From NCBI RefSeq assembly GCF_003478995.1, contig NZ_QUGI01000001.1:152795-182100 (forward strand): a stretch of 29,306 nucleotides of DNA, given 5' to 3'. Under the pieces are notes generated by a model. That model made no database searches. It had not been told where the DNA came from and was given only the letters and a program-made list of their open reading frames with translations. Made by a program: the position numbers and the translations under genes. Every line of letters begins with the position of its first letter. Position 1 is the first letter of the stretch. Below are positions 15,109 through 29,306 of the stretch, piece by piece. Origin of the DNA: Pseudoflavonifractor sp. AF19-9AC (GTDB taxonomy: Bacteria > Bacillota > Clostridia > Oscillospirales > Oscillospiraceae).

Positions 15109-15212
15109 GATCGGCATCCTCTATCCAACATAAACGTTTTCCTGATTGATTTCGATGGGTATCCTGCCCCTCAGTCACACGATGGGATTCCTTGGCGAAT
15201 CCTCCCGTTGGT

Positions 15213-15782
15213 TTACGCCCACGGGTCGGCGGCCTTCGGGGTACGGACACCGGTGAGCAGATACTGCTCCCAGAGAAACCATTTCCCGTCGCTGCCCCGC
15301 TGACGCATTTTAATCGGGCGTGGATCATCTGCGCCGCCGCAGGGAATAAACAGCTTCATATAGCCCTGTTCCTCGCCGGAAACATGGCTGCTTTCCACCC
15401 GGATAGTATAGGGCTGGGTGGGGGTGTAGTTGTTGTCGGGTGTGGAACCCACAAAGTAAGTAAAGGGCAGGTAGGTTTTTCCGTCACGAAAACGGTCATT
15501 CAGGAAGGAGATCTCCTGCCCGTTCAACGGGCGCGGCCCCCGCAGCCAGTTCAGCATGTCCAGACCGATCTGTCGGTCGGCGGCATAGGCACACAGAGCC
15601 AGGACGGTCAGTGCCGCCGTCTGAAAGGGGGTGTCAAGGGACGCCTCCGGAAGAGCCTGCAGCTGAGCAAGGCTCTCAGGAAGGGCCGGGAAGGTAAAGG
15701 TTTCACTTTTGTTTCCCATGGATGAGGCTGCCGTCATAACCGTGTCCATGGCGGAATGTTTCAGCTTGTCAAAAATACTCAT
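15213..15782 (-). CDS. DUF6935 family protein
   Basis: 189 aa, cytoplasmic by absence of signal or membrane segments. I recognise the pattern of DUF6935: ALPESLAQLQALPEASL, FQTAALTVLALCAYA, MLNWLRGPRPL, YTPTQPYTI, GADDPRPIK and a C-terminal WFLWEQYLL ending in DPWA. The function of the family is unknown. Members are, from memory, found with SPFH and zinc-ribbon genes in Clostridia, as here. AGGAG precedes the ATG by 7 nt. It lies 42 bp after a lipoprotein gene and is the last of the 12 tightly packed genes. Confidence 0.82.
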   Translation of the reverse strand: MSIFDKLKHSAMDTVMTAASSMGNKSETFTFPALPESLAQLQALPEASLDTPFQTAALTVLALCAYAADRQIGLDMLNWLRGPRPLNGQEISFLNDRFRDGKTYLPFTYFVGSTPDNNYTPTQPYTIRVESSHVSGEEQGYMKLFIPCGGADDPRPIKMRQRGSDGKWFLWEQYLLTGVRTPKAADPWA

Positions 15783-15824: not shown

Positions 15825-16934
15825 TCAGCCATAGGTGCGGAACAGGTCGATGCAATCCGTTTGCTCACCGAAGAAGGGCGGGCACACTCCGGTTTCCCAG
15901 TCCTGCTCGACGTAGAGGTATTCACCGGTGGGATCCATCCGCACCGGGAAACTTCCGCTGACAGAGCCGCCCATCCCGTCGGAGAGCTCCAGGCAAAGAC
16001 AGCCGCTCTCCATGCGCCAGACGCCGGTGTAGGCAAGCACATACTCCTGCCCGTCCGCCGGTTGCTGATAGAGATTGACGATGCCTTCATAGTCTGGATC
16101 TTCGCTGTCTCCCCAGCTGATTTCTATGTCCCAGTGTTCACAGGACCAGTTGGTGTAGGCCAGCTCCCAGGCCGTGGGCGGATCCCACCGGACGTCCTCC
16201 GAAGGCTCCCAGTCCTCGGGATAGTCCAGCCCGGTCACAACCCCCCAAATCTCAAAATCCATCAGGAGGGGCGCATCCGGATCGCCGGGTATCCTGGGAA
16301 CGCCGTATTCGTCCACCTCCGGAAACCAACCGCACATCGGACCGTTGTCTGGCTCAAGGGTGATACGGACATCCGGTAAGGGGTGAGAATCATCCAGGTT
16401 TTTAAAGATCAGCACCGGCTGGGCGCCTTTTGCCTGGTAGAGCACCTCCTCTGTGACCTCCCCCACTTCGAATTGGGAAGAAACCCATGTGATATGCTCT
16501 GCGGTCAGCATGGTGGTTTCATCCCGGGGGACGATGCAGAATAAATCACCGTAGCCCGGGCCAAGGATACGTTCGGCCGGTATATACAGCAGAAACGGCA
16601 TGGCCTCCGCCAATCCGGCACAATTCTCCCGCAGCCAGCTGGACAGTGGGGTGGAGTCCCCCTGCTCCCGGTATCCCAAGTAGGCCACTGCGCCGGCGTA
16701 CTGGTCGTCGAATGCCATAGCATCATATAACAGGTTCAGAGACTTCTCCGTCAGCTTCGAATCAACTCCCGCCGCAGAATCCTTTCCTCCCTTGCCGCCG
16801 GAAATGGTTCCCGCCGTGCTGCCGGTTTCCGTTTCAACGGGCGGGGTGTCTTTGTCGCCGCAGGCAGTCAGGCACAGAGCCAGCGCCACACACAGAACCG
16901 CCGGAAGAAGCCGGCATCGGATCAAATCCTTCAT
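15825..16934 (-). CDS. Lipoprotein, paralogue of the one at 19494-20705
   Basis: 369 aa, unknown function. A lipoprotein signal with lipobox LTAC places the lipidated Cys at residue 25. A Gly/Ser/Lys linker to about residue 55 follows. The first globular part (AVAYLGYREQ, MPFLLYIPAERILGPGYGDLFCIVPRDE, EEVLYQAKGAQPVLIF) matches the lipoprotein at 19494-20705 in order and spacing. The C-terminal part is Trp- and acid-rich and likely a beta domain (YVLAYTGVWRMESGCLCLEL). It should be anchored on the outer face of the membrane. AGGGGG precedes the start, and the gene sits 15 bp after the TPM gene. Confidence 0.8.
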   Translation of the reverse strand: MKDLIRCRLLPAVLCVALALCLTACGDKDTPPVETETGSTAGTISGGKGGKDSAAGVDSKLTEKSLNLLYDAMAFDDQYAGAVAYLGYREQGDSTPLSSWLRENCAGLAEAMPFLLYIPAERILGPGYGDLFCIVPRDETTMLTAEHITWVSSQFEVGEVTEEVLYQAKGAQPVLIFKNLDDSHPLPDVRITLEPDNGPMCGWFPEVDEYGVPRIPGDPDAPLLMDFEIWGVVTGLDYPEDWEPSEDVRWDPPTAWELAYTNWSCEHWDIEISWGDSEDPDYEGIVNLYQQPADGQEYVLAYTGVWRMESGCLCLELSDGMGGSVSGSFPVRMDPTGEYLYVEQDWETGVCPPFFGEQTDCIDLFRTYG

Positions 16935-16949
16935 GACGCAGCCCCCTTC

Positions 16950-18293
16950 TCAGAATTTTCCGCTGCGGCCGCTGCCCCCGCCGCCGCTTTCGCTGCGGGT
17001 ACTGCCGCCGCTTGAGCTTGATGTTTCAATTTTGGTGCGTGTCTCGGTGGTATGGGTATATTGGTCGTACTGCTGTGTGAGGTGTAGCCCCCCTTCAGTA
17101 AGGTACGCATTGGCCTCCTTCTTTTGACGGACCGACTTCATACCGCGCATGAGCCACATACAGATAGCCCCTGTCGGCAGGCAGGCAAGAACCGCAACTG
17201 CAGGAAAGTACTCCCAAAAGTACTCCCAGTAGGAAAGGCGCACCGGGTCGCCCGCATCGGCCTTGGTCAGAAATTCGTCACAGGCGTCCAGATAGTGGGA
17301 GATACCTCCGTACCAGTCGTTGTCCCCAAAGTCGCCCAGGAATTGTTCCTCCAGCTTTTCCTGACCGAAATCGTCGAAGGCATATTCGGCATACTCGCCG
17401 TAGACGAACGTGGCATAGTTCCGCTCCTCCATGCTCAGGAGCACGATGATGCCATCCCGGTCTTTTCCGAAGCCAAGCTCACTGCCGTGATAGAGCTGAT
17501 AGGTGACCTCGTATACGCTGCCGTCTCCATAATCCGTGAAGTCGTCCACCAGGGCAAAATAGACGCCGCAATGCTGGCGGTTGGAAATGTCTGCGGCACG
17601 GGTCTCCAGTTCCTCCCACTCCTCATAGGTAAGGAGGTCGCTGATATCAAACACATACTGCATGCTGACGCTGCTGGGCTCGGACGTTTCCGGTGCCTCC
17701 GGCACTGTCGGCGTCTCAGGTGTTTCCGGGACAGAACTGTCCGGCGAGCAGTTCGTGAGGATATAATCCTCCGCCGCCTGCGCCATGTCATACACCGCCT
17801 GGGTCAGCGCCACAGCGCTCATGGTGATGTCCTCGCCGTTCCAGGCCCGCTCCGCCATGGAGGGTTCCACCGCAGTGCGGATTGCCTCGGCCAGGGCCTG
17901 GCTGCTGCCCCGGTCTCCGCTCAGGTTGGCGTAAACGCACCAGCCGTCGGCAGGCATGGCGTAGGTGCCCGTGTCCTGCGGCTCCATCAGGATGGTCAAC
18001 GTAGCGCCTTCCCGTTCCTCACCATAGCCGTAATTGTATCTGGCATAGATCCCCGCGGCGGTATCAGTGATGCTGTCATAGCTCACCTGGGTCAGTACAT
18101 CTACACGCAGGTCGATTCCCAATTTTTCTGAAAGTTCCGGGAGGGTTTCTTCGCCCTGCATGGTCAGCACAGCCGAACCCAGTTCTTCGGTTTCATCATA
18201 GATCACGCCATATTCTGATGCAGCCAGAGCGGGCGTACAGAGGGATAGCGCCAGCAGGAGAATCAGTGCAAAAATGGAACACGTTTTCTTCAT
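16950..18293 (-). CDS. Membrane protein with two TPM domains (YdjH-like)
   Basis: 447 aa. A signal peptide (residues 1-24, cleavage near ALAA) exports the N-terminus. A first TPM-like domain covers about residues 27-170 and a Pro/Glu/Thr linker about 183-207. A second, clearer TPM domain spans about 212-340 (YVFDISDLLTYEEWEEL, GVYFALVDDF, GKDRDGIIVLLSMEERNYATFVYG). One membrane segment lies near 355-380. The tail ends in a Ser/Gly-rich SGGGGSGRSGKF, typical of TPM membrane proteins. TPM domains occur in photosystem II repair phosphatases and in YdjH-type proteins of phage-shock loci; enzymatic activity here is not shown. The zinc-ribbon gene lies 19 bp upstream, as in ydjG-ydjH. Confidence 0.85.
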   Translation of the reverse strand: MKKTCSIFALILLLALSLCTPALAASEYGVIYDETEELGSAVLTMQGEETLPELSEKLGIDLRVDVLTQVSYDSITDTAAGIYARYNYGYGEEREGATLTILMEPQDTGTYAMPADGWCVYANLSGDRGSSQALAEAIRTAVEPSMAERAWNGEDITMSAVALTQAVYDMAQAAEDYILTNCSPDSSVPETPETPTVPEAPETSEPSSVSMQYVFDISDLLTYEEWEELETRAADISNRQHCGVYFALVDDFTDYGDGSVYEVTYQLYHGSELGFGKDRDGIIVLLSMEERNYATFVYGEYAEYAFDDFGQEKLEEQFLGDFGDNDWYGGISHYLDACDEFLTKADAGDPVRLSYWEYFWEYFPAVAVLACLPTGAICMWLMRGMKSVRQKKEANAYLTEGGLHLTQQYDQYTHTTETRTKIETSSSSGGSTRSESGGGGSGRSGKF

Positions 18294-18312: not shown

Positions 18313-19446
18313 TCACAGTACCACGAAGACCGCCAGCAACGAGCCCAACACCGACAGAGGGGCGACTATGGCAGCAAACAGGCCCCAGAATCTGCCCCAG
18401 CTGACCGGGAGGTCGCCCACCAGTTTGCCGGTTTGTCCGTTCATGGCAAAGAGAAAGTCCTTCCCCCTCCATTTGCTGTTCAGCATCCACACGGGCATCA
18501 GGGCGTAATGCACTTTGCCACGCTTCAGATTGACGCTGTTATGGATCAGCGTGCAGGTATGATAACCGGTTACCGTGCCGCGCAGCGCCGAGGACAAGGT
18601 CCCCGCGCATCGCTGATCAGCCCTCTGCCGGCATTGCTCTACCGTCACGTCGAACTTATCAGCCAGAAAACCGGGGAGATAGGCCGTGGAGAAGGGCTTC
18701 AGCTCCTGATAGTCGTAGGGCTCGATGGAGTCCATGTGATCGTCCGGCATCTTGCTGGAGGCGTCCACCGGTATTTTCTCAAAGGAGATGGATCCAGCCC
18801 GATAGACGTCATAGTGCTCCGTCTCCGTGATCTTATAGTCCCCCGAGCGGTATGTATGGGAGCGGGTAGCTTCATAACGGGCATCGCCTTCCGCCTCACC
18901 GTCGAACATCCAGAAGGGAACGTAGATCCCCTGGATCTCCTGCACATGGTTCTCCTGGGTAAATCTTTTGGGTAAGAAAATTTTCCCTTTATAGTGGGCT
19001 TTGAGGGCTTTGACGGCATCCTCCTTGCTCAGTTTGAAGGGGATGATGAAATCCGGCCGCAGCTGCCCGGAAAACTGTCCCGGCACCACGGTGGGGTTGC
19101 CGCAGTAGGGGCAGGAGGTGGCCGCCGTATTTTCGTCGCAGATCAGCTCCGCGCCGCAGCTGGGGCAGCTGTAGGCCCGCATACCGTCGCCCTCCGTACC
19201 CCAGTCCTCAGAAAGAGAAGAGGTATCCCACTCGTCCCCGTCCGGGGACGGAGCATTCCGTCCGGCCTCCTCCGCTGCCTGCTGGGCTGCCGCCGCATTT
19301 TCTTCCTTCTCTGCATAAAGCGCCTCGATCTCTGCTACATCGTAACTGGCGCCGCAGTATTCGCACTCCAGCCTGCCGGACGCACCCACAAAATGGAGTG
19401 GGCCGGTACAAGATGGGCACTGATAATTGGTTACCTGTGTTGGCAT
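18313..19446 (-). CDS. TFIIB-type zinc-ribbon membrane protein (YdjG-like)
   Basis: 377 aa. The N-terminus holds a zinc ribbon with C10, C13, C28 and C31. An acidic, Ala/Glu-rich linker follows, then a second ribbon (YSCPSCGAELIC with TSCPYCGNP) around residues 90-120. The main domain includes IIPFKLSKEDAV, IYVPFWMFDGEAEGD and YALMPVWMLNSKW, the pattern of proteins misnamed primosomal protein N' superfamily and of B. subtilis YdjG. The C-terminal 28 residues form a hydrophobic membrane anchor. I chose ATG 19446, with AGGAGG 7 nt upstream, over a longer frame. It lies just ahead of the TPM gene, so the YdjG-YdjH pair is conserved. Confidence 0.85.
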   Translation of the reverse strand: MPTQVTNYQCPSCTGPLHFVGASGRLECEYCGASYDVAEIEALYAEKEENAAAAQQAAEEAGRNAPSPDGDEWDTSSLSEDWGTEGDGMRAYSCPSCGAELICDENTAATSCPYCGNPTVVPGQFSGQLRPDFIIPFKLSKEDAVKALKAHYKGKIFLPKRFTQENHVQEIQGIYVPFWMFDGEAEGDARYEATRSHTYRSGDYKITETEHYDVYRAGSISFEKIPVDASSKMPDDHMDSIEPYDYQELKPFSTAYLPGFLADKFDVTVEQCRQRADQRCAGTLSSALRGTVTGYHTCTLIHNSVNLKRGKVHYALMPVWMLNSKWRGKDFLFAMNGQTGKLVGDLPVSWGRFWGLFAAIVAPLSVLGSLLAVFVVL

Positions 19447-19493
19447 GTAAATGCCTCCTTTCCATACCGAAACAGCCCGGAATCCGCAGAGAA

Positions 19494-20705
19494 TCACCAG
19501 TCCGGGCTTTCGGTGAGCCAGCTGTCCAGTGTCAGGATACGCAGCTGCGCATCATACTTGGGCATAAACGGCAGGTGGGCACCGTTCTCTCCCGCACCCA
19601 ATACCATCTCCTCGCCGCTGGGACTGACCACAAGGGGATACGTATCCGAAATATCGTACGGGTCGTCTGAGACGCCATAGTTTTCTCCGCCCACCAGGGA
19701 CAGGCTGAGGGTCACATAGCTGGGTCCGTCCATGACGGATGTGATCTCCCAGGTGCCGCTCCACATCTCTTCAAAGAGATCCGAACCTTCGTACTGCCAA
19801 TCCAGATTGACGCTTCCGCCCGTCTCATCCTCGGGGAAGAACCATAGGTAGTAATTTGCGGTTTGGTTTGTATCCCATGCTGCCGCCTGCACCGTCCAGC
19901 AGCCCTCAAGTCCAGGGGCGTAGATCCCACTCCAGCCGTCTGCCAGCCACGGTGCAAGTTCCGAAGGCGTACCCCGCCAACCGTATTCCGAAAAGTCAAA
20001 GGAAAGATAATCCCCATTTTCCGAGAAACAGGGCACGATGTGCCCCGTTGACGTATAGAGCTGCGGATCCCATACGCAGTGGTTGCCTGCGTTGTCGACG
20101 ATCTGGACCTCGATGTAGGACCGGTATGCGTATGCATCGTCCCCGCCGGCTGTAAAGATCAGCACCGGGTCCCCGGATTCCGAACGATAGAGAACCTCGA
20201 TGATCTCTTCGTTGCCTGATTTCGGATCCAACCGCATGAGATTGACGGAAACTGTCGCATTTTCATCAATCGGTACGAGACAATACAGATAGTCGTCGTT
20301 TCCGATGGTATGCTCCGCATCAATTTCGGAAATAAAGGGATATTTCTGAAGCATCGACTGATCTGCTTCCGCCAGCCAGTCTCCATCGGAAGTCTCTCCG
20401 GTATAGCCCAGCAAGGCCACACCGAACATAGTCTGGGGGAAATCCATTCTGTCCCGCAGCCAAGCAAGTGATTGTGCCGCTTCCTGGGAAAACTCGGTCT
20501 GTACCGATCCGACATCGGGTCCACCGCCACCCGGACGCAGCACTTCCGGTGTTTTCTTGTCGGTCGTATTGGGGTTCGTTTCTCCGCCGGCGCTTATGTT
20601 CGGCCCATATGTTCCCGTTTGCGGCTTTTGCCCACAGGCACAGAGAGACAGCATCAGAACCAGCGTCAGAAGAAATGCGCTCACTTGTTTTGGTGTTCTT
20701 CTCAT
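19494..20705 (-). CDS. Lipoprotein, paralogue of the one at 15825-16934
   Basis: 403 aa, unknown function. Lipobox LCAC gives a lipidated Cys at residue 24. A Gly/Pro/Thr-rich linker to about residue 60 follows. The globular part begins with GVALLGYTGETS, PFISEIDAEHTIGNDDYLYCLVPIDE and EVLYRSESGDPVLIF, which line up with the paralogue at 15825-16934. The C-terminal half is rich in Trp, Tyr and acidic residues and probably beta-rich. I chose the ATG at 20705 with AAGGAG upstream instead of a TTG five codons earlier. A very stable hairpin lies between this gene and the preceding one. Confidence 0.8.
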   Translation of the reverse strand: MRRTPKQVSAFLLTLVLMLSLCACGQKPQTGTYGPNISAGGETNPNTTDKKTPEVLRPGGGGPDVGSVQTEFSQEAAQSLAWLRDRMDFPQTMFGVALLGYTGETSDGDWLAEADQSMLQKYPFISEIDAEHTIGNDDYLYCLVPIDENATVSVNLMRLDPKSGNEEIIEVLYRSESGDPVLIFTAGGDDAYAYRSYIEVQIVDNAGNHCVWDPQLYTSTGHIVPCFSENGDYLSFDFSEYGWRGTPSELAPWLADGWSGIYAPGLEGCWTVQAAAWDTNQTANYYLWFFPEDETGGSVNLDWQYEGSDLFEEMWSGTWEITSVMDGPSYVTLSLSLVGGENYGVSDDPYDISDTYPLVVSPSGEEMVLGAGENGAHLPFMPKYDAQLRILTLDSWLTESPDW

Positions 20706-20749
20706 AGCCGCTCCTTTCAAGCTTCATCAATCCATACCGTTACGCAAAT

Positions 20750-20800: not shown

Positions 20801-21859
20801 TTATCCGATGTAGTCCGGCATGGACTCGCCCGATTCCATCAAAGGAAGATACCAGTCGTAATAGTAGTAAGGCAGATCTTCCTCGATCACATCATCCCAG
20901 TAGGTTCCCCACGGGCGCAGGTAGATATCATAGGAATACGCATCATCGCCGCTTTCATAGTAGCCGCTGATGTGGATCATGTCCGGGTAATCCACAAGGC
21001 CCGGGTCAACGATCCAGTCTGCGTGCTCCAGGGCAATGTCCGTGAACCATCCGCCCTCGGACATCATGGTGCCAAACTCGCTGGTTCCGGCTTCGTCCAG
21101 GCTGACCGAGGCGGATACCATAGGCTCGGACTTCGTGTAGTCCTCGTCCCAGAGGGTAACGGTGCCCATACCGTCCTCACCGATGTCAATGGTACCGCAG
21201 ATGTCCCACCAGTCGCCTTCCATATCTTCGTAATAGCCCCAGCAGCCGGTCATCACCCACCAGCCGTACCAGTCGCCGTTCCACCACTCACGCGGCTGCC
21301 CGCCGCCGGAGACAGCGGCTCCGCCGGATCCATCGCCCTTGTTGCCGCCGGTAAGGTTGGAAGCGCCGCTGCCCGCAGATTCCCGGCTGACGGTGGACAG
21401 GTCAATGGTGATGGAGTCATTTTTGCTGCCGGTCATCTCCTCAAAAATCACCTCGACCTCGCCGGTGGTATCGTCCAGCTCAAAGGCGGTTTGGATCTCC
21501 ACTGTGGCGCCGGGATCCACATTCTGATACTGGCTGTCATCCACGGACTCCAAGGTTTCCTCGTTGAGATAGACTATGGCCATATCCAGCTCCGTGTCGT
21601 TGTGCATGGCTGTTTCGTAAATGGCCCAAAAATAGTCGGTGGTCTCCTTGCTGTTGTTGGTGAAGTCCAGGGTCAAAACCAGGGCGTCGTTTCCCTCATA
21701 ATCCGTCATGATACTTGCGCCCTTATAGCGCAGCTCAAACTCTCCTACGGTGAGCAGGTTAGGATCTTCGGGTTCTTCTTTTCCCCCTTTGCCGCAGGCT
21801 GTCAGGCTGAGCAGCATGAGAACTGCAAGGAACAAGCAGAGCAGTTTTGTGCGTTTCAT
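20801..21859 (-). CDS. Lipoprotein with DUF5067-like domain
   Basis: 352 aa. Lipobox LTAC places the lipidated Cys at residue 22. The N-terminal domain (about residues 32-145, with ALVLTLDFTNNSKET and DPGATVEIQTAFEL) fits the DUF5067 Ig-like fold seen in many Gram-positive lipoproteins. A Gly/Ser/Asn linker leads to a Trp- and Tyr-rich C-terminal domain (WWNGDWYGWWVMTGCWG) reminiscent of small beta-barrels in related lipoproteins. I chose the ATG at 21859, with AGGAGG 7 nt upstream, not a TTG two codons earlier. Function is unknown; it should sit on the outer membrane face. Confidence 0.82.
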   Translation of the reverse strand: MKRTKLLCLFLAVLMLLSLTACGKGGKEEPEDPNLLTVGEFELRYKGASIMTDYEGNDALVLTLDFTNNSKETTDYFWAIYETAMHNDTELDMAIVYLNEETLESVDDSQYQNVDPGATVEIQTAFELDDTTGEVEVIFEEMTGSKNDSITIDLSTVSRESAGSGASNLTGGNKGDGSGGAAVSGGGQPREWWNGDWYGWWVMTGCWGYYEDMEGDWWDICGTIDIGEDGMGTVTLWDEDYTKSEPMVSASVSLDEAGTSEFGTMMSEGGWFTDIALEHADWIVDPGLVDYPDMIHISGYYESGDDAYSYDIYLRPWGTYWDDVIEEDLPYYYYDWYLPLMESGESMPDYIG

Positions 21860-21876
21860 GTTCAATCCTCCTTATG

Positions 21877-23343
21877 TTAGAAGCCGCTGATCTTGAATGC
21901 CACCAGTTCCATTGCGGACTCGTCCGCCCGGTCTTCGGTCATAATGGCCAGGATACTACCGTCGGCCAGCTTCGCGCCGCCGCAGAACCAGGGGTAACTG
22001 GTACCGAACAGATCGCTGTCTTCCGCCTCGCCGATATAGGTGCCGTCCTTGGCCCAGAGCACCACCTCGCGCATATTTCCATCCAGGGCGAGATAGCCGT
22101 TGGCCGTCTCTGCGACAAAGGTGACGCTTCCCAGGCTGCTGCCGTCGGAATCTGCCAGCGTCAGCTGCAGCACACCGTTGGTATCATAGACAAAGACCTT
22201 GTGGCCGCTTTCATCCGCGGCAGACCCGGTGACATAGATATGGTTCTCATCAATCAGCAGGTGGCTGATCAAATCAACCTCTTTGAACACGATGGTCTCC
22301 GTTTTTACCGCACCGCCGGAGAGGGTAATCTTCTCGCACTCCGAGCTGGAGAACCAGCTGATGCCCCAGGTTCCGGACGGATGCATGGTCACATAATCCG
22401 GGCCCTCATAGGACGCTGTCTTTGCGCCGTCTTTCCAGCTGATCAGCGGCTCCATGAACTCCGCAAGCCAGATGATCCCATTGGTATCGGCAGAAATATT
22501 CGTATATTCCGCATCCAGCGCAATATCCTCTGCAAAGGTCAGGGATGTACCGTCGTAATCGTAGCGCTTCAGCGCACCGTCCACCAGGAGGTACACCTGA
22601 TCCCCAATCACAGCGGCGGCATGGTTGAAGGTTTCCTTCGTTATCATGCAGTCCTTGATGGGGAGCCACTCACTGTTCAGCGTGTAGGTGCCTATCATGG
22701 CGCTGTGAGGCTGGGCGGAGAAGGGCTCGCCTTCCCAGTACCAGGGGCCGTCTTCATTCCCGATATCCTCCAGGTTGATCGTCAGCCCGGAGAGCAGCTG
22801 ATCTACACGCTCATCCTCATACTCGCCGATGATTTCAATCAAAACGGTCGCGTTGGCACCCTCCACACGGCTGAGATACCGCAGGCAGGGAGAGCCCCAA
22901 TAATTACCTTCGGCTTCGAGACAGTCAATGCCGCCGACGGGAGTAAAGTCATAGGCCTGATTGACCGCGTATTCGTACTCGTCGAAGCCGTAGCTGGTGA
23001 GATAGTCGCGGAAGTCTCCCGGATCTTCAATGGAAACATAGATATCGGCTATGACGAGGTTCCTATCAGCGCCTTCCTCGGGAAGCGTCATGCTGATGCT
23101 GGAATAGTCGTCATGATCATAAAAGTCATCTTCTTCGTAGACCCAGCCGTCCGCCTCATTGTAAGTAAGATCCCAAAGGTTGGCATGGATCGTCGTTTCG
23201 CTTCCTGATTCCACAGGAGGCTTTGTCTGCTCGGTTTCTTTCGACGCCGAGCTTGGCTCTGGACTATCCTTGCCGCAGGCTGCGAGGCTGAACAGCATCA
23301 GGGCCGCAAGAAGGAAACATGATATCCTGAACTTGTGTTTCAT
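21877..23343 (-). CDS. Large lipoprotein with possible beta-propeller region
   Basis: 488 aa, family not recognised. Lipobox LAAC gives a lipidated Cys at residue 23, followed by a Ser/Glu/Pro/Thr linker. The first domain (about residues 50-205) is acid-rich (EEDDFYDHDDYSS). From about residue 230 the sequence shows repeated strand-turn patterns (AAVIGDQVYLLVDGALKRYD, TNGIIWLAEF, HKVFVYDTNGVLQLT, ANGYLALDGNMREVVLW). These resemble a beta-propeller of NHL or PQQ-like type; this is inferred from periodicity only. GAGGAG precedes the ATG. Gaps to its neighbours are under 25 bp, so it is within the operon. Confidence 0.78.
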   Translation of the reverse strand: MKHKFRISCFLLAALMLFSLAACGKDSPEPSSASKETEQTKPPVESGSETTIHANLWDLTYNEADGWVYEEDDFYDHDDYSSISMTLPEEGADRNLVIADIYVSIEDPGDFRDYLTSYGFDEYEYAVNQAYDFTPVGGIDCLEAEGNYWGSPCLRYLSRVEGANATVLIEIIGEYEDERVDQLLSGLTINLEDIGNEDGPWYWEGEPFSAQPHSAMIGTYTLNSEWLPIKDCMITKETFNHAAAVIGDQVYLLVDGALKRYDYDGTSLTFAEDIALDAEYTNISADTNGIIWLAEFMEPLISWKDGAKTASYEGPDYVTMHPSGTWGISWFSSSECEKITLSGGAVKTETIVFKEVDLISHLLIDENHIYVTGSAADESGHKVFVYDTNGVLQLTLADSDGSSLGSVTFVAETANGYLALDGNMREVVLWAKDGTYIGEAEDSDLFGTSYPWFCGGAKLADGSILAIMTEDRADESAMELVAFKISGF

Positions 23344-23367: not shown

Positions 23368-24051
23368 TTACTTTTTGTTGCTGAAAAACGGTGTAAGCAG
23401 TTCAGCCACCTTGCTGATGGGCATGGTCTGCAGGATCACCTTTCCGGGGCCGCGGACAACGGTATTAAAAATACCCTCTCCGCCCAGGAACATGTTCTTC
23501 GCGCCCTTGACCATCACAACGTCCATGGAACAGCTCTCTTCCATTGCCGCCAGATAGCCCGTGCTGACCAGCATCTCCTGCCCAGCGGCCAATTCATATT
23601 CTGCCGCATGTCCGTCGATTTCGATAAATGCGGTTCCATGGCCGCTCAGCTTCTGCATGATAAAGCCTTCTCCGCCAAAGAAGCCTGACCCCAGCTTTTT
23701 CTGGAAGTGCATGGACAGCTCCACACCATCTTCCGAGGCAAGGAACGCACTTTTCTGCACGATCATGGAGTGACCTGCGCTGATGTTCAGCGCTTTGATG
23801 GCCCCGGGGAAGCTGGAGGCAAAGGCAATGGTACCATTTCCGCCTTCCGCGGTGAATCGGTTCTGGAAAAGAGAATCCCCCGACACCAGGCGCCCCAGCA
23901 TCTTCTTCATTCCGCCGCCGGAAGTGGTCTCCATCTTGATGTTCGGGCTCATCCAGCTCATGCTTCCGCTCTCAGTGATCATGGATTCGCCGGCAGACAA
24001 TTCACATACGACAACAGGCAGATTCCCGCCTAAAATCTCGTAGCTTTTCAT
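23368..24051 (-). CDS. TIGR00266/AIM24 family protein
   Basis: 227 aa, no signal or membrane segment. The sequence follows the AIM24 beta-sandwich pattern: SAGESMITESGSMSWMS, FTAEGGNGTIAFASSFPG, GFIMQKLSGHGTAFIEI, ELAAGQEMLVSTG and FNTVVRGPGKVILQT. The mitochondrial Aim24 relative is involved in inner-membrane architecture. The bacterial function is unknown, although such genes commonly accompany SPFH, TerD or phage-shock genes. AAAGGGG precedes the start. The gene lies between the DUF4428 and large lipoprotein genes with short gaps. Family assignment is confident, role is inference. Confidence 0.9.
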   Translation of the reverse strand: MKSYEILGGNLPVVVCELSAGESMITESGSMSWMSPNIKMETTSGGGMKKMLGRLVSGDSLFQNRFTAEGGNGTIAFASSFPGAIKALNISAGHSMIVQKSAFLASEDGVELSMHFQKKLGSGFFGGEGFIMQKLSGHGTAFIEIDGHAAEYELAAGQEMLVSTGYLAAMEESCSMDVVMVKGAKNMFLGGEGIFNTVVRGPGKVILQTMPISKVAELLTPFFSNKK

Positions 24052-24098: not shown

Positions 24099-24947
24099 TC
24101 ATCCATTGACAGATCCGCCGCAGAATTCACAGCAGCCTCTGGAGTCCGGTGTGGTGGTTGCGCCGCAGAACGGGCAGGTCACCGCCGCTTTGGGAGCTGC
24201 GGCTGCGGCCGCCTCCTCCCGCGCCTGCTGTCGGACCTGGAGCAGCGCATCCCGGATCTCCATGCCCATCTCCTCATATTGCCGGTACTCTACACTGGCG
24301 CGCACTTCCTCTGCGTTGGAGGTGAGAGAGCCGCCCCGCATACCGCCGAAACCTCCGCGCATCCCACCGCGGGGCCTGCGCATGGCGTCCGGTCCATCCA
24401 GCAGCGTTTCCTCGTCGTTGTCCACAGCGCTGCTGTTCAACTGGAAACGGATCTCGTTGAAATAGGGGTTGTTCACATTGATGACGATGTAGAAATTATA
24501 GGAATAGGCATACCGCCTGGGGTTGAAGCTCTTCCGCTCCCCGTCCTTATCCTCGTATTCGATTTCCGTCTTGCTCTCGTCGATATCCAGCTTGCAGCCG
24601 GTCACATCAGAGAAAGACAGCACATCCGGATTGGCCTCCTCCCAATTTCTGGCGGAGGTGACCATAAACAGGCCGGCGTCTTCGTCCAGCAGCACTTTGG
24701 TGCGCTCGCCCAGGGTCCGGGTGGTACGGAATGCGGAAACTTTCGCCTGATTTGCCTCCCGATAGGCCAGCTGCTCCTGAATCTCTGCCACTGTGCTTTG
24801 GCGGCGGTCGCTGAACCAGGGAGAGAGCTTAGCGGCGCAGCTTTTGCAGAGGTTTCCGTCCTCCAGCTTGCGGTTGCCAAGCAGTCCGATCTCGCCGCCG
24901 CAGACGGAACACTCCTTCTTTTCAAATAACTTTCCAAACAGTCCCAT
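24099..24947 (-). CDS. DUF4428 protein with C-terminal zinc ribbon
   Basis: 282 aa, soluble. The N-terminal zinc-binding DUF4428 module is seen as C13, C16, C34 and C37 in the context CSVCGGEIGLLGNRKLEDG. The middle part (about residues 65-175, with TRTLGERTKVLLDEDAGLF and SYNFYIVINVNNPYFNEI) is likely a PH-like or membrane-proximal beta domain of the kind that often follows DUF4428. A Gly/Arg/Met linker, an Ala/Glu coiled segment and a second ribbon (CPFCGATTTPDSRGCCEFCG) complete the protein. The two-ribbon design parallels the SPFH protein of the same operon. Exact function is unknown. Confidence 0.83.
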   Translation of the reverse strand: MGLFGKLFEKKECSVCGGEIGLLGNRKLEDGNLCKSCAAKLSPWFSDRRQSTVAEIQEQLAYREANQAKVSAFRTTRTLGERTKVLLDEDAGLFMVTSARNWEEANPDVLSFSDVTGCKLDIDESKTEIEYEDKDGERKSFNPRRYAYSYNFYIVINVNNPYFNEIRFQLNSSAVDNDEETLLDGPDAMRRPRGGMRGGFGGMRGGSLTSNAEEVRASVEYRQYEEMGMEIRDALLQVRQQAREEAAAAAAPKAAVTCPFCGATTTPDSRGCCEFCGGSVNG

Positions 24948-24972: not shown

Positions 24973-25380
24973 TTAAACGCCAATGGCGTTCTTCATCTGC
25001 ATGGCGCCATAGATATACAGCCCCGGCAGCAGCAGATTGAGAACCAGGCTGGTAATGCTGAATTTTCCTCCGCCAACGATACCGATGATGATAGAGATGA
25101 TTGCTAAGACCGCGATGACAATGCCCCATTTGATGCAGGAAGCCGCCTTCTGGGGATCGCTGCAGGCGCCGATGCCCTTAATGCCCGCAATGAACTGAAT
25201 AATAGAGGCTACCGTTACAAGGCCGGAACTGACATAGAGCAGTCCGAAGCCCTCCGTGCTTCCCGAAAGCGCCGCCAGAGCACTGATGCCGAGAATGGCC
25301 AGCACACCTGCGATTACAGCAATCACGCCGCCGATGATCATGAGGATGGATGTCACCTTCAAAAGCTTCTGACCTTTCAT
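24973..25380 (-). CDS. Small four-helix membrane protein
   Basis: 135 aa. Four hydrophobic stretches are visible at about residues 8-36, 44-68, 80-103 and 108-128, with almost no extramembrane loops. I do not recognise the family. I chose the ATG at 25380 with AGGAGG 8 nt upstream; a frame extending 20 codons further has no site. It lies between the one-TM protein and the DUF4428 protein and is the most hydrophobic member of the operon. It may serve as a membrane platform for the soluble zinc-ribbon proteins, which is inference from context only. Confidence 0.78.
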   Translation of the reverse strand: MKGQKLLKVTSILMIIGGVIAVIAGVLAILGISALAALSGSTEGFGLLYVSSGLVTVASIIQFIAGIKGIGACSDPQKAASCIKWGIVIAVLAIISIIIGIVGGGKFSITSLVLNLLLPGLYIYGAMQMKNAIGV

Positions 25381-25448
25381 TTGTAATACCTCCTGTTTTA
25401 TGTTTTTATAAATGGATTTACATGTTATGGATGGTCCCATGCGATACG

Positions 25449-26030
25449 TTATAACGGAGGGATCTCCCGCCCGATGGGGTCGGCCAGCTCTTTCAGCAGA
25501 GCTACCAGAGTCGAAATGCGTTTATCGTTAGGAGAGGAGTACTTTATCCTCTGCTCACCCTCTTCCGTGTCCCAGATGAGAGTAATGCTGGAGGAGCTGC
25601 TTTCGTCCTTCGCGCCGCCCAACCAGCGTCCCAGGCTGCTCCACAGGTCTATCCTTGGCTCCGGCTTCGGCTTCATCAGCGGGTAAATCTCCAAGACGAC
25701 CTGCTCCACATCGGCCCACTGCTCGGCAGAGATGGGGACATTCTCTTTTTCGAATGGATCATGCCAGCCCACGCCTTTTGGAGGCTCCTCCGGGTAATAG
25801 AAGGTCTCCACGATGGCATCTGGGGAAAGCCAGATAAAGAAGTCGTTTCGGACTGTCATACCGCCGAAAACGCTGTACATGACACCGGTTAATACGCCGG
25901 GCGGTGCGGCAGGTTCCGTACCCAGCAGTGAATTGCCCTCTCGCTGCTTGAGGTAGAGGGCTCCTGTCAGCAGCAGGATCAGGGCCAGGGCTGCGGTGCA
26001 AAGCATTGCGGCTTTTTGGCCTTGTTTCAT
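25449..26030 (-). CDS. Single-TM anchored protein of unknown family
   Basis: 193 aa. One N-terminal hydrophobic segment (about residues 8-27) follows a short basic start, so it is an uncleaved anchor or signal peptide. The rest is likely extracytoplasmic, with WHDPFEKENVPISAEQWADVEQ, then a Ser-rich turn and a beta strand ITLIWDTEEGEQRIKY. No known domain is recognised. The start overlaps the SPFH gene stop in ATGA (26027-26030), which indicates translational coupling to that gene. It is the second gene of the operon. Confidence 0.78.
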   Translation of the reverse strand: MKQGQKAAMLCTAALALILLLTGALYLKQREGNSLLGTEPAAPPGVLTGVMYSVFGGMTVRNDFFIWLSPDAIVETFYYPEEPPKGVGWHDPFEKENVPISAEQWADVEQVVLEIYPLMKPKPEPRIDLWSSLGRWLGGAKDESSSSSITLIWDTEEGEQRIKYSSPNDKRISTLVALLKELADPIGREIPPL

Positions 26031-27367
26031 CCCTGTACGTCGCCGTCATCAAAGGGGTCGCCGCACTCGGGGCAGAACTTAGGGGGATGGGCGGGGTCGT
26101 CAGGCTCCCAGCCGCACTTGTCACACTTATACTGGGGAACACCTGCGGGCTTGGGTTTGCCGCACTCGGCGCAGAACTTACCCTTGTTTACCGTGCCGCA
26201 GGAGCAGGTCCAGCCGTCTGCGGCAGGCTTGGGCTTGCCGCACTCGGGACAGAATTTTCCGGTGGCGGTGGCCCCGCAGGAGCAGACCCAGCCGCTGGGG
26301 GCGGGAGGTGCGGGGGCGGGCGCCGGGGGAGGAGGGGGAGCGGGTTGTGCCTGCTGCTGGGCACCCATCTGATAGAGGTTCTGGGCGTTCATGCCTCCCA
26401 TCTGTCCGGCCATTCCCATGCCCATAAAGGCCATGGCGGGACCGGCATTGGGATTACTTGCCGCAGACTGCATGGCGCTGGCCTGGGCGCCCACCAGATG
26501 GGCCGCCGCCCGGCTGGGATCCATAAAGGCCGCATTGCGCTGCATTTCCTTGATCATCTGCTCGTCTTCCTCGTTGGCCTTGACGCTGGAGACGCCGAAG
26601 GAGACGATCTCGATGCCGCGCAGGTCACGCCAGCGGGAGGAGAGCTGCTCGTTGAGAGCTTCTGCCAGCTCCAGTGTGTGTCCGGGGAGGGAGGAGTAGC
26701 GGATCCCCATGTCCGAAATTTTGGCAAAGGCGGGCTGGAGAGCGGTCAGGAGTTCCGTTTTCATCTGCCCGGCGATCTGCTCGGTCTTGAAGTCCTCGGT
26801 GACGTTGCCGCAGACGTTTTTGTAAAACAGCATGGGGTTTGTCAGGCGGACACTGTACTCGCCGAAGCAGCGGATGCCGATGTCCATATCGATAGCCGCC
26901 CGCTGGTCCACCACCCGGAAGGGGACAGGGCTGGGGGTGCCGTACTTGTTGCCGGTGAGCTCCTTGGTGTTGAAGTAGTAGATCCGCTGATCCTTGGGGG
27001 CCTCGCCGCCGAAGGTGAAGCGCTTGCCGATGTTCTGGAACACGCTCTTGATGGATTCTCCCAGATCGCCGGTAAAGAGGCTGGGTTCTGTGGAAGTGTC
27101 GTAGGTGTACTCGCCCGGCTCGGCACACATATCCACAATTTGGCCCTGCTCCACGATGAGCATGCACTGGCCGTTTGCCACCGCGATGACAGAGCCATTG
27201 GTGATGATATTTTCATCCCCCTTGGTGTTGCTGGAGCGGCCCGTGACCTTCTTTTTTCCCTTGACGGCCAGCACATCCGCGGGGAGGGCTTCGCAGTAGA
27301 AAAACTCCTTCCACTGGTCGGCCATCACACCGCCGGCGGCTCCAAATGCAGCTTTAATTAGTCCCAT
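26027..27367 (-). CDS. SPFH-domain protein with three C-terminal zinc ribbons (YdjI-like)
   Basis: 446 aa. The N-terminal two thirds (about residues 20-300) match the SPFH/virion-core-like family of B. subtilis YdjI: DQWKEFFYCEALPADVLAVKG, EQGQIVDMCAEPGEYTYD, YYFNTKE, YSVRLTNP and GIEIVSFGVSSVKAN. A Met/Gly/Ala region and a Pro-Ala linker of about 25 residues lead to three ribbons: WVCSCG with FCPECGKPKP, WTCSCG with FCAECGKPKP, and YKCDKCG with FCPECGDPF. The first two are near duplicates. B. subtilis YdjI is known to work with PspA at the membrane. Here it is the first gene of the operon, with a leader of about 180 nt below an operator-like box. Confidence 0.92.
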   Translation of the reverse strand: MGLIKAAFGAAGGVMADQWKEFFYCEALPADVLAVKGKKKVTGRSSNTKGDENIITNGSVIAVANGQCMLIVEQGQIVDMCAEPGEYTYDTSTEPSLFTGDLGESIKSVFQNIGKRFTFGGEAPKDQRIYYFNTKELTGNKYGTPSPVPFRVVDQRAAIDMDIGIRCFGEYSVRLTNPMLFYKNVCGNVTEDFKTEQIAGQMKTELLTALQPAFAKISDMGIRYSSLPGHTLELAEALNEQLSSRWRDLRGIEIVSFGVSSVKANEEDEQMIKEMQRNAAFMDPSRAAAHLVGAQASAMQSAASNPNAGPAMAFMGMGMAGQMGGMNAQNLYQMGAQQQAQPAPPPPPAPAPAPPAPSGWVCSCGATATGKFCPECGKPKPAADGWTCSCGTVNKGKFCAECGKPKPAGVPQYKCDKCGWEPDDPAHPPKFCPECGDPFDDGDVQG

Positions 27368-27551: not shown

Positions 27552-27596
27552 ATTTTACTTGGCTTTGTTGGTTTGCACCCTACCCGCAGCGGGTAG
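27552..27596 (-). promoter_or_regulatory. Operator box plus -10 of the 12-gene operon
   Basis: The palindrome CTACCCGCAGCGGGTAG (27580-27596, 8-1-8 symmetry) is separated by exactly 22 bp from a minus-strand -10, TAAAAT (27552-27557). The hexamer 17 bp above the -10 is GGGTGC, so no -35 is recognisable and an activator would be needed. The box centre would be at about -43, a typical activator position. An identical box at the same distance precedes receiver-like A. Confidence 0.72.
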
Positions 27597-27616
27597 TTTT
27601 TGGATAAAAAGCAAAA

Positions 27617-27644
27617 AAGCGGAGCGGTATTTACCGCTCCGCTT
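27617..27644 (-). terminator. Intrinsic terminator after the secreted peptide gene
   Basis: AAGCGGAGCGGTA (27617-27629) pairs perfectly with 27632-27644. On the minus strand the stem is followed by TTTTTTGCTTTTT. It separates the frameshifted secreted peptide gene from the SPFH operon promoter. Confidence 0.88.
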
Positions 27645-27673
27645 GCTGTATATACCGAAATTTTTGTGAAAGC

Positions 27674-27866
27674 TTACTGTTTCTCAAAGGTCACGATCAC
27701 TTCCTCCATATCAATGACGATGGTCTTTCCATCATAGATGCAGGCCATACGTTCCGCCGCTGGTGATCTCGGGAGCCTCGGCGGCGCTGGCCGTCACGCC
27801 CAGAGCGGGCACCAGTGAGAATATCATGGCCAGGGTCAGCAGCAGACTGGTGATCCGTTTTCTCAT
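27674..27866 (-). pseudogene. Small secreted peptide gene with frameshift
   Basis: A good ribosome site (GGAGGAG) precedes the ATG at 27866. The first frame encodes a clear signal peptide (MRKRITSLLLTLAMIFSLVP, cleavage near ASAAE) and stops after about 44 codons, at CTA TGA. The +1-shifted frame continues with IYDGKTIVIDMEEVIVTFEK and stops at 27674, right before a strong terminator. The total of 193 bp is one base more than 64 codons, so removing one base near 27740-27756 would give a 63-residue secreted protein. It may be a real mutation, a sequencing error in the assembly, or programmed slippage. The family is not recognised. Confidence 0.65.
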
Positions 27867-27943
27867 GTCTTTTCTCCTCCTTTTCCAAAGTATCGTTGTT
27901 TCCGTCCACGAACCGTGTTTCAGGCTGTGTCAGAAAAGGGGAC

Positions 27944-27988
27944 CCACGCCTATTTCATAGGCGTGGAAATGGGGGTGCCCCCATTTCC
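27944..27988 (-). other. Two abutting perfect hairpins after receiver-like A
   Basis: CCACGCCTAT (27944-27953) pairs with 27957-27966, and GGAAATGGGGG (27965-27975) pairs with 27978-27988. The two stems share two bases. They lie 20 bp after the stop of receiver-like A on the minus strand and are followed, after GTCCCC, by TTTT. They are probably a tandem terminator or an mRNA-stabilising 3' structure. Confidence 0.55.
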
Positions 27989-28007
27989 AAAGGATTTCTG
28001 TCCGCCG

Positions 28008-28385
28008 CTAAAGAGACTGCAGGCTGGCGGCCAGATAATCCAGGGACACATCATAAAATACAAAATCATCGATCTCCCCCTTCCGCTTGGCCTCGATGGC
28101 CCGGTGGACCGCCTCCGTCTGCCCCTCCGGGCACATGAGCATGAGGCGGCAGTGGGGCGTGACCTCCCGTAGCCATGCGCACAGGGCCAGACAATAGCCG
28201 ATGTCCTGGGCGCCGTCCTCGGCCACCTCCAGCAGCGCCCCGGTGGCCAGGTGGGAGCGGATGGCCACATCTGCGTTGGCATAGTCCGGCTCGTAGCACA
28301 GCTGGAGGCCGGGGTCGTCCCGTGCCTTGGCCATCAGGCCCTGGGCCAGCGACGCCCGGCGCATGATGAGCACTACGGTTTTCAG
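28008..28385 (-). CDS. Stand-alone receiver-like protein A
   Basis: 125 aa if translation starts at CTG 28385. That codon has GGGAGG 8 nt upstream, and the resulting protein has the same length and the same MKTV start as protein B at 14731-15108. No ATG or usable GTG fits. The C-terminus DDFVFYDVSLDYLAASLQSL aligns with the last helix of the receiver domain in the neighbouring LuxR regulator, but the invariant Lys is Asp. The expected phosphoacceptor strand reads ALLEVAED, with Glu in place of Asp, and the beta-1 acidic pair is absent. It is therefore probably a phosphorylation-independent pseudo-receiver. It has its own operator-like box and -10 just upstream. Function unknown; a partner or antagonist of the two-component system is inferred. 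Confidence 0.68.
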   Translation of the reverse strand: MKTVVLIMRRASLAQGLMAKARDDPGLQLCYEPDYANADVAIRSHLATGALLEVAEDGAQDIGYCLALCAWLREVTPHCRLMLMCPEGQTEAVHRAIEAKRKGEIDDFVFYDVSLDYLAASLQSL

Positions 28386-28421
28386 CGTCCCCACCTCCCT
28401 GCATATCAGATATCTTGATTT

Positions 28422-28466
28422 ATTGTAGCGCTCTTTTGCGCCCGGCGCCCTACCCGCAGCGGGTAG
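28422..28466 (-). promoter_or_regulatory. Operator box plus -10 of receiver-like A
   Basis: CTACCCGCAGCGGGTAG (28450-28466) stands exactly 22 bp from TACAAT (28422-28427 read on the minus strand). The hexamer at -35 spacing is GGGCGC, not a consensus. The start codon is about 30 nt below the expected transcription start. Box and spacing are identical to the promoter at 27552-27596. Confidence 0.75.
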
Positions 28467-28485
28467 TCTTTTGCACCAAAGAAAA

Positions 28486-28512
28486 AATCCACCGGCGCGG
28501 GGCCGGTGGATT
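28486..28512 (-). terminator. Intrinsic terminator of the response regulator gene
   Basis: AATCCACCGGC (28486-28496) pairs perfectly with 28502-28512 around a 5-nt loop. On the minus strand it is followed by TTTTTTCTTT. It lies 17 bp after the regulator stop codon and isolates it from the receiver-like A promoter. Confidence 0.9.
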
Positions 28513-28528: not shown

Positions 28529-29146
28529 TTAATACAGGGGGTTGATCCAGCCGTTGGAAATCATGTAAAAGGCCAGATCCACCGCCTTGGAAAAGCCGGT
28601 CTTGCCCAGCATGTTCATCTTGTGATATTTCACGGTGTTCTCGCTGATGAACAGCTCCCGGGCGATCTCTTTTGTGGTCATGTGCTTGCACATCAGTCGG
28701 AGCACCTCCATCTCACGGTCGGTGAGGGGGGCCTCCCCCTGGGGCAGGGGGATGGTCTTGGGCTCCGGGAAGCGGCTGTCTCCCGCCATCACTGCCCGGG
28801 CCACCTCCAGGAAATCGTTCAGGCTCCGGCTTTTGTAGATAAAGCCGTTGGCCCCGGCGGCCTTGGCCCTGGGGATGTAGGTGATCTCATCAAAGGCGGT
28901 CATAACGATGATTTTGATCCCCTCGCCGGCCTTGCGGATGTCCTCCACCGCCTTCAGCCCGGAGGCGCCCCCCTCGGTACAGACGTCCATCAGAACCAGA
29001 TCGGGGTGCAGGTGGCGGCAGAAATCCAGGGCGTAGTCGGCGTTTGGCACCTCTCCCACCACGGAGAAATCCCCTGACGCAGTCAGTGCCGCCGCCAGTG
29101 ATTCCCGCATGGATGCGTGGTCCTCCACGATCAGCACTTTGGTCAT
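28529..29146 (-). CDS. LuxR/NarL-family response regulator
   Basis: 205 aa. The receiver domain (about residues 1-120) has the acidic VEDH start, the phosphoacceptor Asp in LVLMDV, the Thr in VMTAF and the Lys in FIYKS, all intact. A linker leads to a LuxR-type helix-turn-helix (LTDREMEVLRLMCKHMTTKEIARELFISENTVKYH, split here as LTDREMEVLRLM and TKEIARELFISENTVKYH). It should bind DNA as a dimer after phosphorylation by the kinase encoded just upstream, with which it overlaps by ATGA. Such regulators bind short palindromes. The two CTACCCGCAGCGGGTAG boxes downstream are the obvious candidates, though binding is inferred. A terminator follows its stop. Confidence 0.93.
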   Translation of the reverse strand: MTKVLIVEDHASMRESLAAALTASGDFSVVGEVPNADYALDFCRHLHPDLVLMDVCTEGGASGLKAVEDIRKAGEGIKIIVMTAFDEITYIPRAKAAGANGFIYKSRSLNDFLEVARAVMAGDSRFPEPKTIPLPQGEAPLTDREMEVLRLMCKHMTTKEIARELFISENTVKYHKMNMLGKTGFSKAVDLAFYMISNGWINPLY

Positions 29147-29306
29147 GTTCGCTCAGCCTCCATTGGAACAGATAGTTCAATGCGGAACCGGGGGGAAGTG
29201 TAGAGCTCCATGCTGCCGCCCAGCCGGGCCATGCGGCGGCGCATCCCGCCGATGCCGCCCCCCTCACGGACTGGACCGGCGGGGGGGGTGCCGTTGTCGG
29301 GGACCG
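29143..29306 (-). CDS. Histidine kinase, C-terminal end (cut by window edge)
   Basis: Only the last 53 codons are in the window. They read as the end of a HATPase_c domain: DNGTPP, then REGGGIGGMRRRMARLGGS, corresponding to the G boxes of NarX/DesK-type kinases, then a final strand RFRIELSVPM. The stop overlaps the regulator start as ATGA, the usual coupling in such pairs. The sensor and dimerisation domains lie beyond the right edge, so the signal sensed cannot be read here. Confidence 0.88.
   Translation of the reverse strand, partial: VPDNGTPPAGPVREGGGIGGMRRRMARLGGSMELYTSPRFRIELSVPMEAERT

What the first reader, a model, noticed from the sequence alone, without database searches (positions are those of the whole stretch)
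27552..28466. Two identical 17-bp palindromes at identical spacing from -10 hexamers define a small regulon
CTACCCGCAGCGGGTAG occurs at 27580-27596 and 28450-28466. Each is exactly 22 bp from a -10 (TAAAAT and TACAAT, minus strand). The 22-bp spacers differ in sequence, so spacing rather than recent duplication is conserved. Neither promoter has a -35. The LuxR-type regulator encoded next door is the natural activator, which would link the two-component system to receiver-like A and to the 12-gene SPFH operon.
Basis: partly seen in the sequence, partly recalled or inferred. Interest (0 to 1): 0.85.

Follow-up and report, generated by a model that had tools for sequence, protein, structure and literature searches.

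The report
Mobile gene cluster's own promoter switch
Two identical 17-letter DNA palindromes mark promoters that are very probably switched on by the neighbouring NarL-type regulator, and the same promoter design recurs in related gut bacteria in a membrane-protein gene cluster that in some of them lies on mobile elements.

Summary
CTACCCGCNGCGGGTAG sits 22 bp upstream of a -10 with no -35. A scan of 84,980 species genomes for the box plus TAnnnT at 14-30 bp gave 31 stretches: all 23 labelled clostridial have it at 22 bp, one unlabelled at 21, and 0 of 7 from other groups at 22. Of 16 boxes found without asking for a -10, 15 have it at 22 bp; of 6 stray boxes in genomes without the regulator, none. 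The regulator ortholog is in 18 of 20 box genomes, and in genome samples box and regulator go together. The site resembles NarL's inverted heptamers (TACCC...GGGTA), centred near -43, an activator position. One regulator with a changed recognition helix has a changed palindrome at the same place. In relatives another such promoter drives the sensor-kinase-regulator operon itself, and the module lies on two different conjugative-element backbones. Targets A and B are degenerate receiver proteins. Limits: some SPFH operons and some regulator genes have no box nearby; binding, activation and starts are untested.

The parts
28450..28466 (-). Box 2, palindrome CTACCCGCTGCGGGTAG upstream of gene A
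28422..28427 (-). -10 TACAAT, 22 bp from box 2
27580..27596 (-). Box 1, palindrome CTACCCGCTGCGGGTAG upstream of the SPFH operon
27552..27557 (-). -10 TAAAAT, 22 bp from box 1
27575..27601 (-). Box 1 with conserved flanks AAAAA and GGTGC
28445..28471 (-). Box 2 with conserved flanks AAAGA and GGCGC
28529..29146 (-). NarL-type response regulator (receiver + GerE HTH), proposed activator
   Evidence: Pfam; PDB relatives DesR, VraR, NarL; co-occurrence
29143..29304 (-). C-terminal 53 residues of the sensor kinase, cut by the window edge; its stop overlaps the regulator start
   Evidence: relatives' kinase
28486..28512 (-). terminator-like hairpin after the regulator gene, directly before box 2
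28008..28394 (-). Gene A, degenerate receiver (128 aa from GTG 28394; a CTG start at 28385 is also possible)
27677..27866 (-). remnant of an S-layer-like gene that is long in relatives
27617..27644 (-). terminator-like hairpin directly before box 1
26027..27367 (-). SPFH (Band_7_1) protein, first gene of the operon
25449..26030 (-). 193-aa protein of the operon, no Pfam match
24973..25440 (-). 155-aa protein of the operon, no Pfam match
24099..24947 (-). DUF4428 protein
23368..24051 (-). AIM24 protein
21877..23343 (-). 488-aa probable lipoprotein
   Evidence: no Pfam match; lipoprotein judged by eye
20801..21865 (-). DUF5067 probable lipoprotein
19494..20720 (-). 408-aa probable lipoprotein
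18313..19497 (-). zinc-ribbon membrane protein
   Evidence: (weak Trm112p match), reading of sequence
16950..18293 (-). TPM domain protein
15825..16934 (-). 369-aa probable lipoprotein
15213..15782 (-). DUF6935 protein
14731..15117 (-). Gene B, degenerate receiver, 31% identical to A, last gene of the operon
14588..14624 (-). strong terminator-like hairpin (15 pairs) after gene B

Best explanation
The two palindromes are operator sites of the NarL-type response regulator encoded next door. Phosphorylated by the kinase encoded just before it, the regulator binds as a dimer to the inverted half-sites TACCCGC/GCGGGTA, centred about 43 bp upstream of the transcription start. There it stands in for the missing -35 element (the class II activator position) and recruits RNA polymerase to the -10 exactly 22 bp away. 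This turns on gene A, a degenerate receiver, and the 13-gene SPFH operon that ends with a second degenerate receiver, B. In relatives another promoter of this design drives the sensor-kinase-regulator operon, so the circuit is probably self-amplifying. Shown: sites, spacing, flanks, lack of -35, conservation, co-occurrence with the regulator, gene targets, and conjugative-element context in relatives. Inferred: direct binding, activation rather than repression, start points, the signal, and the function of the cargo.
For: Spacing: 23 of 23 stretches labelled clostridial at 22 bp, one labelled 'uncultured bacterium' at 21, 0 of 7 others at 22; 15 of 16 boxes found without a -10 demand, 0 of 6 stray boxes. 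No -35 in 46 distinct promoters. Co-occurrence: family sample of 250 genomes, box in 5, regulator in 5, both in 4; order sample of 394, exact box in 3, regulator in 4, both in 3; regulator in 18 of 20 box genomes. Of 9 regulator genomes found by protein in the three samples, 8 have such a promoter at 22 bp, G853 and G322 not through the box scans. Half-sites like NarL's TACCCCTAAAGGGGTA and position like napF and yeaR (PMC4549865 passages). SENTVKYHK in 12 of 12 aligned regulators of CTACCC loci; SERTVKYHK in G322 with CTGTCCC...GGGACAG at the same place and spacing; the changed residue corresponds to DosR Lys179, a base contact (PMC4082495 passage).
Against: No binding or expression data. G208 has a 53% identical regulator but no recognisable box. 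No box was found in the stretches fetched around the regulator of G007, G009 and G018, nor around SPFH genes of G013, G016, G017 (second copy), G018, G019 and G208. G008 has a box but no regulator hit. One box (G002 C182) lacks the flanks. Many of the genomes are fragmentary and related, so p-values are too good. The box-regulator covariation is a single case.
Confidence: 0.85

Rival explanations
1. The regulator binds the box but as a repressor, holding A and the SPFH operon off until a signal releases it.
For: Co-occurrence data do not tell activation from repression. NarL-type proteins can repress (NarL at frdA, PMC4549865 passages).
Against: None of 46 promoters has a -35, and the site is centred near -43, where activators of this class sit, with a fixed 22-bp phase to the -10. 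A repressor would not need that phase.
Confidence: 0.07
2. The box is read by the membrane protein with a LuxR-type HTH that is encoded in the box-driven operon of some relatives, not by the response regulator.
For: It has a GerE domain and is encoded behind a box in several relatives.
Against: Close orthologs (64% identity or more) in only 8 of 24 genomes searched; no match in 10 of 24, of which 7 are box genomes from the scan, while the regulator is in 22 of 24. The genomes are partly fragmentary.
Confidence: 0.05
3. The box is not a regulator site but a weak terminator or a repeat spread by local duplication.
For: With its T-rich flank it scores as a terminator-like hairpin on the plus strand; 43 nt around the two copies are 81% identical.
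Against: No plus-strand gene was seen to end there. The -10 phase is fixed across diverged loci, boxes are few and go with the regulator, and a regulator change goes with a box change in place.
Confidence: 0.02

Closest known systems
E. coli NarL 7-2-7 sites, such as those of napF and yeaR (PMC4549865 passages)
   Same: Inverted TACCC/GGGTA heptamers read by a NarL-type response regulator dimer, centred between about -42 and -45
   Different: One base between the heptamers instead of two; wider palindrome with conserved flanks; one strict spacing to the -10; no -35 at any of the promoters; different sensors and targets
B. subtilis ydjFGHI operon (PspA with YdjI SPFH, YdjG, YdjH; PMC8581546 abstract, PMC11237479 passages)
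   Same: SPFH protein with zinc-ribbon and TPM-domain partners, tied to envelope stress
   Different: No PspA among the 19 window proteins scanned; AIM24, DUF6935, several lipoproteins and degenerate receivers added; controlled here by a two-component regulator rather than SigW (SigW link from search listing)
LiaSR/VraSR-type two-component systems (PMC11237479 passages)
   Same: NarL-type regulator linked to membrane or envelope genes; VraR and DesR are among the nearest solved relatives
   Different: Different sensor (7TM protein plus kinase), different targets, mobile setting; fits no named NCBIfam equivalog

Membership tests
NarL/FixJ-type response regulator regulon | Receiver domain plus GerE HTH | tested here: met
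   Response_reg 1.4e-21, GerE 5.6e-17
NarL/FixJ-type response regulator regulon | Cognate kinase next door | tested here: met
   Kinase C-terminus overlaps the regulator start in the window; kinase adjacent in relatives; HATPase_c match below the curated cut-off
NarL/FixJ-type response regulator regulon | Inverted-repeat operator in target promoters | tested here: met
NarL/FixJ-type response regulator regulon | Direct binding after phosphorylation | not testable with these tools
   Needs purified protein
Class II activator-dependent promoter | Activator site centred near -41.5 to -45 replacing the -35 | tested here: met
   Geometry and lack of -35; the start point itself is assumed 7 bp past the -10; class II positions recalled, NarL examples
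Class II activator-dependent promoter | Transcription depends on the activator | not testable with these tools
   Needs reporter assay
Phage-shock / ydjFGHI operon | PspA family protein | tested here: not met
   None among the 19 window proteins scanned with Pfam
Phage-shock / ydjFGHI operon | SPFH, zinc-ribbon and TPM partners | tested here: met
Integrative conjugative element (relatives G226, G003) | Coupling protein or relaxase, VirB4-like ATPase and a recombinase around the module | tested here: met
   G226: T4SS-DNA_transf, MobL, VirB4-like, serine recombinases; G003: VirB4-like and tyrosine integrase, coupling protein by 25% similarity only. Ends and transfer not tested
Integrative conjugative element (the window itself) | Conjugation genes and element ends | tested here: inconclusive
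   Only a serine recombinase at 6914-8584; no conjugation gene matched in the window; the other side is outside the window and no whole genome is held

The most novel reading that the evidence does not exclude
A portable envelope-maintenance regulon that brings its own sensor, kinase, activator and a private promoter code (palindrome plus fixed 22-bp spacing, a few sites, nearly all inside the module), so that a conjugative element can run it in hosts of different families without touching host genes; and whose two degenerate receivers, one with Glu in place of the phospho-acceptor Asp, are made by the circuit as built-in modulators of its own kinase or regulator.
Probability: 0.35. Interest if true: 0.75.

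Novelty: new variant of a known kind. Interest (0 to 1): 0.58.

Why it matters
It gives a concrete regulator-to-promoter assignment, with a strict rule (palindrome, 22 bp, no -35), for a group of response regulators that fits no named NCBIfam equivalog, in gut bacteria. It ties an SPFH/TPM/AIM24 membrane operon to a two-component signal and, in relatives, to horizontal transfer, and it turns two odd receiver-like proteins into testable parts of a feedback circuit. The pair SENTVKYHK/CTACCC and SERTVKYHK/CTGTCCC is a ready case for testing how NarL-type recognition changes.

Tried and rejected
Chance: rejected. Recent local duplication: the local repeat is 43 nt at 81%, but the same flanks and spacing occur in 46 distinct promoters (near-identical orthologs included, and this set required TAnnnT at 22 bp). 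A -35 hidden at the box edge: GGGYGC falls there and does not resemble TTGACA. The membrane LuxR-type protein as reader of the box: disfavoured. Phage or plasmid carriage: no box in viral contigs, no regulator relative there, none in the plasmid collection at 1e-30. Defence assignment of the cargo: in PADLOC no match for SPFH, the 155-aa, DUF4428, AIM24, TPM, DUF6935 and 604-aa proteins; a marginal one for the zinc-ribbon protein (PDC-S64, 3.4e-4) and only HTH-level ones for the regulator. Literature: one search found 25 papers holding at least one of four box strings; in the 20 listed only the 8-mer occurs, never the palindrome; 5 were not shown. Searches for SPFH with conjugative elements or two-component systems listed nothing on this module; two searches gave nothing usable. 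The library lacks most subscription papers.

G208: by eye a TGACCC-TTTT-GGGCCA element lies near a TACAAT upstream of its zinc-ribbon gene, but its centre is shifted; a lead only.

Full report
What was claimed and what is there. Both 17-bp palindromes are at the stated places, the only two within 3 mismatches in the window. Read on the minus strand each is followed by 22 bp and then TAAAAT (27557-27552) or TACAAT (28427-28422). The first leads to the SPFH operon, the second to gene A (GTG at 28394, or possibly a CTG at 28385 behind a GGGAGG). Both boxes lie just after terminator-like hairpins. The shared unit is larger than 17 bp (43 nt at 81%).

Is the design real beyond this window? One scan of 84,980 species genomes for CTACCCGCNGCGGGTAG with TAnnnT at 14 to 30 bp gave 31 stretches. 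Sorted by spacing: all 23 stretches labelled as Clostridia or members of it have TAnnnT at 22 bp; one labelled 'uncultured bacterium' (L013, regulator 93% identical) has it at 21; of 7 from other groups (Bacteroidota, Proteobacteria, a Paenibacillus) none has it at 22. The 24 stretches come from 20 genomes. That pattern demanded some TAnnnT, so a second test used boxes found without it: all 13 one-mismatch boxes of those 20 genomes plus the 3 boxes of G226. Of these 16, 15 have TAnnnT at 22 bp in one orientation and one at 21. Several are near-identical orthologs, and one (G002 C182) lacks the flanks. Of 6 one-mismatch boxes in 5 genomes without the regulator ortholog, none has it at 22. Over 25 distinct promoters the consensus is AAARA-CTACCCGC-T-GCGGGTAG-GGYGC-N17-TAYAAT. 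Over 46 distinct promoters none has 4 of 6 -35 letters at 16-18 bp, and the promoter-distal half-site deviates less than the proximal one (7 against 23 deviations). That set required TAnnnT at 22 bp, so it does not test the spacing again.

Does it go with the regulator? Genome samples were drawn without regard to the box, except that the centre, G003, is a box genome. Family sample of 250: regulator ortholog (E up to 1e-45) in 5, boxes up to 1 mismatch in 5, both in 4. The fifth box genome (G148) has one lone one-mismatch box without a -10 at 22 bp; the fifth regulator genome (G208, 53% identical) has no recognisable box. Order sample of 394: regulator in 4, exact box in 3, all three among the 4; the fourth (G322) has a divergent box; 5 further genomes have only one-mismatch boxes and no regulator ortholog, fewer than the roughly 15 genomes in which the reversed control pattern occurs (my count of the listing). 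Over the 602 different genomes of both samples (my count of handles): exact box 5, regulator 7, both 5, Fisher 3e-11; without the centre 3e-9. The genomes are related, so these values are too good. Class sample of 391: regulator in 3 (E up to 1e-42). One of them, G853, was not among the box-scan genomes; it has two boxes on the contig of its regulator, one directly after the regulator gene, and one about 1.7 kb upstream of an SPFH gene, all at 22 bp, with 2-3 mismatches. Conversely 18 of the 20 box genomes encode the regulator, once each. Of the two misses, G020's contig ends 53 bp beyond the box on the side where the regulator would lie; G008 is unexplained.

Limits of the pairing. In the stretches I fetched, no box lies next to the regulator of G007, G009 or G018, although each of these genomes has a box on another contig. 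No box was found around SPFH genes of G013, G016, G017 (second copy), G018, G019 and G208. So SPFH is a frequent, not an invariant, target.

How specific is the protein-DNA pairing? All 12 regulators aligned from CTACCC loci have SENTVKYHK in the recognition helix; G853 has SENTVKYHI. G322 has SERTVKYHK, and in its next intergenic region, with the flanks AAAGA and GGTG and 22 bp to a TAGACT, lies CTGTCCCGGGGGGACAG, the only exact match to CTGTCCCNNNGGGACAG in that genome. G208 has SESTVKRHI. By matched ranges in a PDB comparison (query 5-59 to DevR 149-203, taken as ungapped) the changed residue corresponds to DosR Lys179, which with Lys182 and Asn183 contacts bases (PMC4082495, passage). This is one case; it supports but does not prove.

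What kind of site? A NarL paper prints an engineered 7-2-7 site as TACCCCTAAAGGGGTA and places NarL sites of napF and yeaR at -40 to -49 and -38 to -47 (PMC4549865, passages). The box here is C-TACCCGC-N-GCGGGTA-G, that is 7-1-7, centred about -43 if the start is 7 bp past the -10. The likeliest mechanism is a regulator dimer at the class II position in place of a -35. The HTH matches NarL, DosR, VraR and DesR structures; the protein is below the cut-off of every NCBIfam equivalog among the 25 shown of 71. Its relatives in the protein collection are many (4660 proteins at E up to 0.001; the 120 listed are 74-96% identical and unnamed).

What else belongs to the regulon? In G226 the order is: solute-binding lipoprotein, membrane protein with LuxR-type HTH, small zinc protein, 806-aa protein with a 7TM kinase-type region, kinase, regulator, box, A, S-layer-like protein, box, SPFH operon, B. 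A further box stands before the solute-binding gene in G226, G012, G003, G004, G014 and G006, so the regulator probably drives its own operon there. In the window the kinase is cut by the edge; its last 53 residues are visible and its stop overlaps the regulator start. Other box-driven genes in relatives are small lipoproteins, a zinc-ribbon protein and proteins I did not identify.

A and B. Neither has a Pfam match at 0.001. A profile of 16 relatives matches the DevR receiver at 6.6e-4. The predicted structure of A (mean pLDDT 93) has the receiver fold (Foldseek probability 1.00, TM about 0.7-0.8 to many receivers). In the alignment A-type proteins have Glu and B-type proteins mostly Asp at the acceptor position, and the stretch that is FIYKS in the regulator reads FVFYD or similar, without the Lys (my reading). 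That they modulate the circuit is inference.

Mobility. In G226 (3.2-Mb contig) the module is flanked by a coupling protein, a MobL relaxase, a VirB4-like ATPase and serine recombinases; G012 carries the same module followed by matching recombinases. In G003 the module sits near a different VirB4-like ATPase (21% identical to the first) and a tyrosine integrase. Mediterraneibacter glycyrrhizinilyticus An427, of Lachnospiraceae, has the module with four boxes at 22 bp, regulator 85% and SPFH 81% identical, on a 23-kb contig whose assignment I could not check. The window itself shows only a serine recombinase at the corresponding end, so its mobility is inferred. Element ends and transfer were not tested.

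What the cargo does. SPFH, zinc-ribbon and TPM proteins recall the ydj operon of Bacillus subtilis, where YdjI with YdjG/H localises PspA to the membrane (PMC8581546 abstract; PMC11237479 passages), but no PspA was found among the 19 window proteins scanned. An envelope-maintenance role is the best guess, with low certainty; the signal is unknown.

Verdict. The finding is real and its interpretation largely right: a new regulon of a known type of regulator, with an unusually strict promoter design and, in relatives, a mobile setting.

Noticed in passing
window 6914-8584: Large serine recombinase at the end of the module where G226 and G012 carry theirs; beyond it come housekeeping genes (by eye), so an element end probably lies near 6.7-6.9 kb.
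   Followed up: partly
window 11108-12535: RecQ-like helicase scoring 339 bits against PADLOC DpdF models, next to 604-aa and 360-aa proteins without a Pfam match.
   Followed up: no
window 27677-27866: Short remnant of an S-layer-like gene that is 1547 aa long in G226 (SLH domains).
   Followed up: partly
L068 16372-18792 and relatives: 806-aa protein with a 7TM histidine-kinase region (HisKA_7TM) always next to the kinase where both sides of the regulator were seen: possibly a two-protein sensor.
   Followed up: partly
L011 552-1444 and L127: A Christensenella contig carries three box promoters within about 900 bp, two of them back to back in opposite directions.
   Followed up: no
window 27597-27601 and 28467-28471 (AAARA side), 27575-27579 and 28445-28449 (GGYGC side): The box flanks are nearly as conserved as the box; GGYGC falls at the -35 place without being a -35. 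Role unknown.
   Followed up: partly
promoter set: The promoter-distal half-site is better conserved than the proximal one, mostly at the inner positions.
   Followed up: no
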